Shown here: positions 20,052 to 21,431 of the stretch, piece after piece
How the letters are laid out: every line of letters starts with the position of its first letter
Numbering within the stretch: the first letter of the stretch is position 1
Assembly (NCBI RefSeq): GCF_001677955.1
Contig: NZ_LELA01000006.1
Coordinates: 1 to 64,000 of the forward strand
Direction: 5' to 3'
DNA: 64,000 nt
Origin: Chryseobacterium sp. BGARF1
GTDB lineage: Bacteria; Bacteroidota; Bacteroidia; Flavobacteriales; Weeksellaceae
Program-made: the position numbers and the translations under genes
Notes under the pieces: generated by a model
What the model was told of the DNA's origin: nothing
The model's database searches: none
Seen by the model: only the letters and a program-made list of their open reading frames with translations

Positions 20052-21251
20052 TTAAATTATTTCGATCTGATTTCTCAAAAGGTCTTCAAACTCATCTCTT
20101 TTTCTGATCAAATGAGCTTTTCCATCTAAGAAAAGAACTTCTGCAGGTTTTAATCTTGAATTGAAGTTTGAACTCATTTCAAAACCATAAGCTCCTGCAT
20201 TGTGGAATGCTAAAATATCGCCTTCTCTTACTTCATTCAGCTTTCTGTCCCAAGCAAAAGTATCTGTTTCACAGATATTTCCTACAACCGTATAAATTCT
20301 TTCCGCTCCTTTTGGATTAGATAAATTTTCAATCTGGTGGTAAGAATCGTAAAACATCGGACGAATCAAGTGATTGAATCCAGAATTTACGCCAACAAAA
20401 ACGGTCGCTGTCGTTTGTTTGATGACATTTGCTTTTACCAATAAATAGCCACTTTTTCCAACTAGAAATTTTCCAGGCTCAAACCAAAGTTCAAATTTCT
20501 TTCCGGTAGATTTTGAAAATTCAGAGATTACTCTTTCTACTTTTTTTCCTAAAGTTTTCACATCGGTCTCTTCTTCGCTGTCTTGATAAGGAATTTTGAA
20601 ACCACTCCCCATATCAAGATATTTCAGATTCGGGAAATGCTCAGACAATTCAAGCATAATATCAAGAGCCTGAAGGAAAACATCAGGATCTTTTATTTCG
20701 CTTCCTGTATGCATGTGAAGACCTTCTACATTCAGGTTGGTAGATTTCATCACTCTTTCAATATGACGAACCTGATGAATAGAAATTCCGAATTTAGAAT
20801 CGATATGACCTGTAGAGATTTTGTAATTTCCGCCAGCAAAAATATGCGGATTGATCCTCACTAAAATAGGATATGTATTCCCATATTTATTCCCGAATTG
20901 CTCAAGAATAGAGATATTATCGATATTGATGTGAACACCGAAAGCCATTGCTTCCTCAATCTCAGCCAAATCTACACAGTTGGGCGTAAATAATATTTTT
21001 TCTTTTGTGAAACCAGCTTTTAGACCTAATTTCACTTCGTTTATTGAAACACAATCCAAAGAAGCACCTAAGTTCTTGACATATTTCAGAATATTGATGT
21101 TTGTCAATGCCTTTGCAGCATAGAAGAACTTTGTGTGTTTTAAAAAAGAGGATGTAAGTTTTTCGTATTGAATTTTAATCGATTCTGCATCGTAAACATA
21201 CACCGGTGTGCCAAATTCGCTGGCAATCTTTAATAATTCTTTTGAATTCAT
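20052..21251 (-). CDS. lysA: Diaminopimelate decarboxylase
   Basis: The last step of lysine synthesis: meso-diaminopimelate to lysine plus CO2, PLP-dependent. The PLP lysine is in FYAAKALTN (residue 47 from the chosen start). HTGSEI and DMGSGFKIPY follow, and EPGKFLV and CETDTFAWDR complete the fold-III decarboxylase signature. I chose the ATG at 21249-21251 (MNSKELLKIASEFGTPVYVYD) because the in-frame ATG at 21305 would translate a terminator hairpin. The length of 399 residues is normal for this phylum. The upstream leader looks like an attenuator (21268-21431). Confidence 0.95.
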   Translation of the reverse strand: MNSKELLKIASEFGTPVYVYDAESIKIQYEKLTSSFLKHTKFFYAAKALTNINILKYVKNLGASLDCVSINEVKLGLKAGFTKEKILFTPNCVDLAEIEEAMAFGVHINIDNISILEQFGNKYGNTYPILVRINPHIFAGGNYKISTGHIDSKFGISIHQVRHIERVMKSTNLNVEGLHMHTGSEIKDPDVFLQALDIMLELSEHFPNLKYLDMGSGFKIPYQDSEEETDVKTLGKKVERVISEFSKSTGKKFELWFEPGKFLVGKSGYLLVKANVIKQTTATVFVGVNSGFNHLIRPMFYDSYHQIENLSNPKGAERIYTVVGNICETDTFAWDRKLNEVREGDILAFHNAGAYGFEMSSNFNSRLKPAEVLFLDGKAHLIRKRDEFEDLLRNQIEII

Positions 21252-21267
21252 AATTTCGATTTTACAT

Positions 21268-21301
21268 AAAAAAAGGCAGATTCTTCCGAAAAGAGTCTGC
21301 C
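21268..21301 (-). terminator. Terminator or attenuator hairpin in the lysA leader
   Basis: On the minus strand GGCAGACTCTT (21301-21291), loop TTCGG, then AAGAATCTGCC (21285-21275) with one wobble, followed by seven T (21274-21268). It ends only 16 bases before the lysA ATG, so lysA must be transcribed through it. Confidence 0.75.
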
Positions 21302-21332
21302 GCAATAATTATTTTTTATGCAAGGCAACTCC

Positions 21333-21404
21333 TTAAATATTCCAAACCTTAGAGAACCTTACAGTTCCCTTTTTACCAGTTTTATTTTGTTTAAAATTTT
21401 GCAT
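21333..21404 (-). CDS. Putative lysA leader peptide
   Basis: A 23-codon ORF, ATG at 21402-21404 and TAA at 21333-21335, lies between the promoter box and the hairpin. Five of its 23 residues are Lys, including a KK pair (NKTGKKGT). Directly after its stop the sequence GGAGTTGCC (21332-21324) can pair, with one bulge, with the 5' half of the terminator (GGCAGACTC, 21301-21293). This is the architecture of leader-peptide attenuation. Translation of the ORF is unproven, and Lys is common in AT-rich DNA. Confidence 0.4.
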   Translation of the reverse strand: MQNFKQNKTGKKGTVRFSKVWNI

Positions 21405-21423
21405 TGCTTTTTTTATTCTTTTG

Positions 21424-21431
21424 CAAAAGTA
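21424..21431 (-). promoter_or_regulatory. Promoter -7 box of lysA
   Basis: TACTTTTG on the minus strand, about 175 bases before the lysA ATG, the only good consensus in the gap. It gives a leader of about 165 bases. Confidence 0.6.

What the first reader, a model, noticed from the sequence alone, without database searches (positions are those of the whole stretch)
21251..21431. lysA leader looks like a leader-peptide attenuator
Seen in the sequence: a TACTTTTG promoter box (21424-21431), a 23-codon ORF with five Lys codons including KK (21333-21404), a stop codon followed at once by GGAGTTGCC (21332-21324), and a terminator hairpin with seven T ending 16 bases before the lysA ATG. GGAGTTGCC can pair with the 5' half of that hairpin (GGCAGACTC, 21301-21293, one bulge), so antiterminator and terminator exclude each other. 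A ribosome at the ORF stop would cover GGAGTTGCC and favour termination; stalling at the KK codons would leave it free. Because the hairpin is so close to lysA, lysA must be read through it. Peptide-based control of lysA would be unusual; the known lysine control is mostly riboswitch-type.
Basis: partly seen in the sequence, partly recalled or inferred. Interest (0 to 1): 0.62.

Follow-up and report, generated by a model that had tools for sequence, protein, structure and literature searches.

The report
Lysine leader-peptide switch before lysA
A short lysine-rich reading frame and a two-state RNA hairpin sit between the promoter and the lysine-making gene lysA in Chryseobacterium and some related genera, and most likely let the cell switch lysA on when lysine runs short, a control well known for tryptophan and histidine genes but usually done by a riboswitch for lysine.

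Summary
The Lys-rich mini-ORF, the segment right after its stop codon and the terminator stand directly upstream of lysA in 84 of 144 lysA loci read in the family: Chryseobacterium, Epilithonimonas, Halpernia and four genera I could not name. Peptides fall to about 30% identity between genera but stay Lys-rich (mean 5.9). Changes are synonymous twice as often as chance predicts. Terminator, antiterminator and a hairpin inside the ORF show covariation, weakest for the antiterminator. A promoter box precedes the ORF in 93 of 94 and follows the terminator in none. No lysine riboswitch in 40 of 40 genomes. The same genome has textbook His and Trp leaders; its hisG leader has the same stop-codon layout. 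Best explanation: ribosome-mediated attenuation of lysA by lysyl-tRNA supply. The device is absent from 17 of 50 congeners. There are no expression data, and at equilibrium the terminator often wins even with a stalled ribosome, so switching must be kinetic. I found no lysine/lysA leader peptide in the open-access papers searched.

The parts
21424..21431 (-). Promoter -7 box TACTTTTG (TAnnTTTG type); transcription start expected near 21419
   Evidence: TAnnTTTG lies 16-29 nt before the leader ATG in 93 of 94 leaders; consensus and its -12 to -5 position reported for F. psychrophilum, PMC9723704, passages. Start site itself is inferred.
21333..21404 (-). Leader-peptide ORF, 23 codons plus TAA, five Lys codons (K5, K8, K11, K12, K19)
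   Evidence: synonymous excess and no stop gained in 69 distinct ORFs
21369..21374 (-). KK control codons (codons 11 and 12, AAA AAG)
   Evidence: role as control codons inferred
21351..21370 (-). Hairpin H1 inside the ORF (arms 21370-21364 and 21357-21351), overlapping the second Lys codon of KK
   Evidence: 93.7% of cells paired in 45 leaders, 2 of 7 pairs changed on both sides; pause or spacing role inferred
21324..21332 (-). Segment 3 (GGAGTTGCC), directly after the stop codon; 5' half of the antiterminator
   Evidence: Complementary to 21301-21293 with one bulge; pairs in 88.2% of cells, 3 of 10 pairs changed on both sides
21293..21301 (-). Segment 4 (GGCAGACTC), shared arm: 3' half of the antiterminator, 5' half of the terminator
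21275..21301 (-). Terminator hairpin
   Evidence: 88.2% of cells paired, 6 of 12 pairs changed on both sides
21268..21274 (-). Run of seven T after the terminator hairpin
20052..21251 (-). lysA (diaminopimelate decarboxylase), the controlled gene; ATG at 21251

Best explanation
A ribosome-mediated transcription attenuator that sets lysA transcription by the supply of charged lysyl-tRNA. RNA polymerase starts near 21419 and a ribosome translates the 23-codon leader behind it. With enough lysine the ribosome reaches the stop codon and covers segment 3 (21332-21324); segment 4 then pairs with its downstream partner and the terminator stops transcription 16 bases before lysA. When lysine is short the ribosome waits at Lys codons (KK 21374-21369, or the later one), segment 3 is free and pairs with segment 4 as it emerges, the terminator cannot form, and lysA is transcribed. 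Shown from sequence: the parts, their conservation, the coding signature, covariation, the promoter position and the place before lysA. Inferred: that lysine is the signal, the kinetic order of folding, and the role of hairpin H1 as a pause or spacing element.
For: Conserved Lys-rich leaders before lysA in 84 of 144 loci and, with a core pattern, 78 of 80 named loci, the other 2 cut by a contig end. Coding: 22 synonymous to 28 non-synonymous changes against 22% expected, p 0.0005. Covariation of terminator and H1 and of the antiterminator. A C of the shared arm is kept in 44 of 45 leaders although it is unpaired in the terminator in 25; it pairs with segment 3 in 39. Segment 3 begins 0-2 nt after the stop in 91 of 94. 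On the nascent transcript the antiterminator forms (P over 0.5) in 80 of 94 with a ribosome at KK and 3 of 94 with one at the stop. Promoter before the ORF in 93 of 94, none after the terminator. Same genome: His leader before hisG with the same stop layout, Trp leader before trpE. No lysine riboswitch in 40 genomes.
Against: No expression data. On the complete leader at equilibrium the terminator wins in 15 of 18 representatives even with a ribosome at KK; folding only the RNA downstream of the ribosome, the antiterminator wins in 41 of 94, where also 24 of 94 keep some nascent pairing with a ribosome at the stop. Antiterminator covariation is not above shuffles in the number of pairs with double change (92 of 500) or of pair types (424 of 500), and cognate duplexes are little better than swapped ones outside the two main genera (-9.36 against -8.84). 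In genus g43 the post-stop pairing is not significant (p 0.12, 0.18). The device is missing in 17 of 50 congeners. Lys codons are scattered rather than in one long run as in the His and Trp leaders.
Confidence: 0.85

Rival explanations
1. Arrest-peptide sensor: the nascent peptide itself senses lysine or diaminopimelate in the ribosome tunnel and stalls the ribosome at or near the stop codon (as TnaC and SpeFL do for other ligands, recalled), so that segment 3 stays covered and transcription ends.
For: Nearly invariant peptide within Chryseobacterium and Epilithonimonas, FSKVWN included; KG and FSK kept between genera; the segment starts right at the stop codon.
Against: The C-terminus is not conserved between genera (WNI, WNV, SVD, GISVT, KPV). 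The peptide is no more conserved than the His leader of the same seven congeners (0.87 against 0.84 mean identity). The F, S and G codons are also constrained by hairpin H1.
Confidence: 0.08
2. The RNA leader is sensed directly by a metabolite or a protein (riboswitch or protein-bound leader) and the ORF is incidental.
For: Strong RNA conservation and a conserved hairpin inside the ORF; sub-threshold matches to L20_leader (30.9 bits in L120, cut-off 58.7).
Against: Coding signature and strongly diverged but Lys-rich peptides; no Rfam family over cut-off (sub-threshold only); RF00168 in 0 of 40 genomes.
Confidence: 0.04
3. The ORF is an ordinary small gene with its own terminator, and lysA is merely read through constitutively.
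For: Conserved frame and stop codon; the terminator is predicted to win at equilibrium in most leaders.
Against: Always before lysA in the named loci where lysA could be seen (78 of 78); strong model hits in 296 genomes of the order only in this family, and the 15 weaker places read look like gene ends; the peptide diverges strongly; post-stop pairing with the terminator arm.
Confidence: 0.03

Closest known systems
Histidine leader-peptide attenuator (his operon type), here seen before hisG in the same genome (L335)
   Same: Short ORF with codons of the end product, stop codon followed at once by a segment complementary to the terminator 5' arm, terminator before the gene
   Different: Lysine instead of histidine; control codons scattered, with KK instead of a His-rich run; a conserved hairpin overlaps the KK codons
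Tryptophan leader-peptide attenuator, here before trpE in the same genome (L336)
   Same: Mini-ORF with control codons and a downstream terminator
   Different: WWW run; antiterminator layout not analysed here beyond a look by eye
Lysine riboswitch (L box, RF00168)
   Same: Controls lysine genes by transcription termination (recalled; L-box control of lysine stated in PMC1262725, passage)
   Different: No match in 40 family genomes; this leader carries a translated ORF
Leader-peptide attenuation reported for Flavobacterium psychrophilum (PMC9723704, section 19 read)
   Same: Same bacterial order as I understand it (recalled); the authors report strong clues for leader-peptide attenuation before amino-acid operons; pheA and hisG are among conserved 5' elements

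Membership tests
Ribosome-mediated (leader-peptide) transcription attenuator | Short ORF with start and stop between promoter and structural gene | tested here: met
   84 of 144 loci; coding signature
Ribosome-mediated (leader-peptide) transcription attenuator | Codons of the amino acid that the gene makes, kept in relatives | tested here: met
   Mean 5.93 Lys per peptide in 94 leaders; kept at about 30% identity; 8.4% Lys in long window ORFs
Ribosome-mediated (leader-peptide) transcription attenuator | Intrinsic terminator before the gene, with no promoter after it | tested here: met
   (TAnnTTTG boxes only)
Ribosome-mediated (leader-peptide) transcription attenuator | Antiterminator that excludes the terminator | tested here: met
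   weaker covariation than the terminator, not significant in genus g43
Ribosome-mediated (leader-peptide) transcription attenuator | Ribosome position decides which structure forms | tested here: inconclusive
   Nascent folding 80 of 94 at KK against 3 of 94 at the stop; equilibrium folding often disagrees
Ribosome-mediated (leader-peptide) transcription attenuator | Expression rises when the amino acid is short | not testable with these tools
   No expression data
Lysine riboswitch RF00168 | Match to the family covariance model | tested here: not met
   0 of 40 family genomes, own included; controls ring in 4 of 14
Rfam leader families (His, Trp, Phe, L20 and others) | Match over the curated cut-off | tested here: not met
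   No match in the window; only sub-threshold matches in the leader and 10 relatives
Arrest peptide (TnaC/SpeFL type) | Conserved C-terminal stalling residues | tested here: not met
   C-terminus conserved within but not between genera
Arrest peptide (TnaC/SpeFL type) | Ligand-dependent ribosome stalling | not testable with these tools
   Needs toeprinting or ribosome profiling

The most novel reading that the evidence does not exclude
A first lysine-specific leader-peptide attenuator in which the peptide is more than a row of Lys codons: its conserved KG...FSK core, whose codons also build a hairpin inside the ORF, senses lysine supply (or free lysine or diaminopimelate) by codon waiting and nascent-chain stalling together.
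Probability: 0.1. Interest if true: 0.75.

Novelty: new variant of a known kind. Interest (0 to 1): 0.5.

Why it matters
Lysine genes are usually described as riboswitch-controlled. A lysine leader-peptide attenuator would add an amino acid to the classic attenuation mechanism and suggests that this family uses one scheme for his, trp and lys. lysA turns diaminopimelate into lysine, so control at this step spares the diaminopimelate needed for the cell wall (pathway knowledge). Its absence in 17 of 50 congeners gives natural comparisons.

Tried and rejected
Programmed -1 frameshift at A AAA AAG next to hairpin H1, considered by eye on the alignment: rejected, because the base before AAA AAG varies (T in the window) and the -1 stop is a by-product of the TCT/ACT AAG codons, lacking in some leaders.

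Second copies elsewhere: the model search gave weak hits (own contig C106, E 0.015; one recurrent place in six same-genus genomes, E 7e-5 to 0.01). I fetched 15 weak places (5 of those six among them); by eye 14 look like gene 3' ends followed by a terminator and one (L219) lies inside a gene. Rejected as copies.

Lysine riboswitch and known Rfam leaders: no match over cut-off. A trp-like 2:3 pairing between the H1 3' arm and segment 3: by eye at most about 4 pairs and not conserved; dropped. Extra pairing of the start-codon region with the post-stop linker: cognate -8.24, swapped between genera -6.41, within g45 -7.31 against -6.46; left open. The swap test of antiterminator duplexes gave little signal outside the two main genera. 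The E. coli thr leader was fetched and folded as a yardstick but not used.

Literature: searches showed me no lysine/lysA leader peptide (listings; passages of some papers). Apparent lysA hits in PMC10117765 are words such as lysate; that paper has a Thr/Lys-rich sORF before an aspartate dehydrogenase gene (passages). Lopatovskaya et al. 2010, cited in PMC4833913 (passages), surveys attenuation across bacteria and was not readable here. PMC4117421 and PMC6386406 (passages) gave nothing on lysA.

Rows dropped: L014 has the leader by eye but my terminator finder missed it, so it is in no count. L085 is cut by its contig end and counted as without. 15 of 109 leaders were duplicates. Alignment A1 uses 45 of 94 distinct leaders, chosen by me to span the groups; searches used 23 and 18 representatives. 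In L158 and L162 I placed segment 3 by eye inside the ORF. 80 of the 91 stretches were held. The tree uses 30 of the 50 own-genus genomes (those with a whole lysA at hand).

Full report
OBSERVATION. The leader folds better than its shuffles (z -2.85, 2 of 200 as good). Rfam has no family over cut-off in the window.

CONSERVATION. The peptide is found at 74-100% identity in 27 of 36 same-genus genomes, own included. lysA was located in 181 of 197 family genomes. I read 144 lysA upstream regions, one per genome, and my script found the leader in 84: 33 of 50 in the own genus g1, 21 of 22 in g28 (the other is cut by its contig end but shows the terminator), 23 of 36 in g45, 2 of 2 in g26, 2 of 2 in g43, 1 of 1 in g46, 2 of 4 in g30, and 0 of 27 in 13 further genera. 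A degenerate core pattern hit 91 stretches of named genomes; of the 80 held, 78 have lysA directly downstream (its ATG 69-90 nt after the match) and 2 are cut by a contig end. Names there are mostly Chryseobacterium, with Epilithonimonas and Halpernia; equal contig lengths tie g1, g28 and g26 to these names. Twenty lysA upstream regions from other families of the order lack the leader, by eye. A covariance model run over 296 genomes of the order, with strict filters, gave 28 strong hits (E 5e-10 or better), all in this family; the other listed hits are weak (E 7e-5 or worse).

PEPTIDE AND CODING. 94 distinct leaders carry on average 5.93 Lys, 25% of residues, against 8.4% in long window ORFs. 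Between genera the peptides fall to 26-32% identity with the window peptide (17% for one), yet share a KG...FSK core with a few exceptions. In 69 distinct 72-nt ORFs of the Chryseobacterium/Epilithonimonas type there are 22 synonymous and 28 non-synonymous changes where 22% synonymous is expected (p 0.0005), 18 variable third positions against 8 first and 8 second, no stop gained, and TAA varies to TGA and TAG. One relative has a two-codon insertion (L152). The frame has therefore been under selection as a reading frame.

RNA. On the 45 leaders of alignment A1 the terminator pairs in 88.2% of cells with 6 of 12 pairs changed on both sides, and the hairpin inside the ORF (H1, 21370-21351) in 93.7% with 2 of 7. 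The antiterminator pairs in 88.2% with 3 of 10 pairs changed on both sides; slid versions pair in 34-58%. Cells with double change and the covariation score exceed all 500 shuffles, but the numbers of doubly changed pairs and of pair types do not (92 and 424 of 500 shuffles reach them), so it is weaker evidence than for the terminator. A C in the shared arm is kept in 44 of 45, though its terminator partner is A in 22 and T in 3; it pairs with the post-stop segment in 39: the arm serves two partners. The segment starts 0-2 nt after the stop in 91 of 94. Its complementarity to the terminator arm beats shuffled linkers at p 0.05 or less in 16 of 23 representatives, worst in genus g43 (p 0.12 and 0.18). 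In g30 the stop lies beyond the segment, which a terminating ribosome should still cover (inference).

SWITCHING, COMPUTED. On the transcript ending in the terminator loop the antiterminator forms (P over 0.5) in 80 of 94 with a ribosome at KK, 72 with no ribosome and 3 with a ribosome at the stop. On the complete leader at equilibrium the terminator wins in 15 of 18 representatives even with a ribosome at KK. If only the RNA downstream of the ribosome is folded, the antiterminator beats the terminator in 41 of 94 at KK and 0 of 94 at the stop; the nascent measure is then 89 of 94 at KK and 24 of 94 at the stop. For the window leader alone, the stretch 21350-21268 folds with the antiterminator as best structure. 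So the logic fits but must be kinetic; this is the main computed weakness.

TRANSCRIPTION. TAnnTTTG, the -7 consensus reported for F. psychrophilum (PMC9723704, passages), lies 16-29 nt before the leader ATG in 93 of 94 and after the terminator in 0 of 94; chance is about 0.04 per window of that size. lysA must then be read through the terminator. In congeners without the leader a promoter box stands close to lysA, by eye. On a lysA tree of 30 congeners presence or absence needs 2 changes (shuffled mean 6.5).

CONTROLS IN THE SAME GENOME. Upstream of hisG lies MKPNFLTVHHYYHHLC and upstream of trpE MIISNNKNWWWHSNSSSGLMLLSCC, each followed by a terminator-like hairpin. In a chosen set of relatives His-rich mini-ORFs precede hisG in 20 of 20 and WW-containing ones trpE in 22 of 23. 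In 7 of 7 same-genus hisG leaders, and 11 of 21 in all, the stop region is complementary to the terminator 5' arm (-6 kcal/mol or better), the layout seen at lysA. Mean peptide identity in seven congeners is 0.87 for lys, 0.84 for his (equal-length pairs only) and 0.73 for trp, so strong peptide conservation needs no special peptide function. The homoserine dehydrogenase gene shows no obvious leader, by eye.

ALTERNATIVES. RF00168 has no match in 40 of 40 family genomes, while 4 of 14 control genomes ring. The arrest-peptide reading is not excluded, but the C-terminus is not conserved between genera. The weak second-locus hits that I read look like gene ends.

LITERATURE. In the open-access library I found no lysine or lysA leader peptide (searches). 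A 2005 survey of Actinobacteria found none for lysine and cites L-box control (PMC1262725, passages). A 2010 survey calls a leader peptide outside Proteobacteria and Actinobacteria new and does not contain the word lysine (PMC2965389, passages). F. psychrophilum has reported clues for leader-peptide attenuation before amino-acid operons (PMC9723704, section 19). Subscription papers, among them Lopatovskaya 2010, were not readable, so priority is not settled.

VERDICT. A real, conserved leader-peptide attenuator before lysA; mechanism classical, amino acid unusual. Confidence 0.85 in the mechanism, from sequence alone.

Noticed in passing
L335 (own genome C2, upstream of hisG) and L336 (own genome C224, upstream of trpE): Classical His and Trp leader peptides with terminators; similar ones before hisG in 20 of 20 and trpE in 22 of 23 relatives searched.
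   Followed up: partly
window 21351-21374: AAA AAG directly before hairpin H1 resembles a -1 frameshift site in many leaders (A AAA AAG); judged a by-product.
   Followed up: partly
window 21309-21404: The start-codon region (AUGCAA) can pair with UUGCAU after segment 3; cognate pairs are somewhat better than swapped ones. Could make termination the default without translation.
   Followed up: partly
window 21251-21305: The lysA frame is open up to a TTG at 21305 through the terminator, an artefact of ORF listing; the spacing of terminator to ATG varies in relatives.
   Followed up: partly
L172 (genus g41), just before lysA: A terminator-like hairpin near lysA without a recognisable Lys-rich mini-ORF (by eye); perhaps a remnant.
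   Followed up: no
L120 65-187 (-), L134 231-337 (+), window 21262-21377 (-): Repeated sub-threshold matches to Rfam L20_leader (17.8-30.9 bits, cut-off 58.7), probably shared AT-rich anatomy.
   Followed up: no
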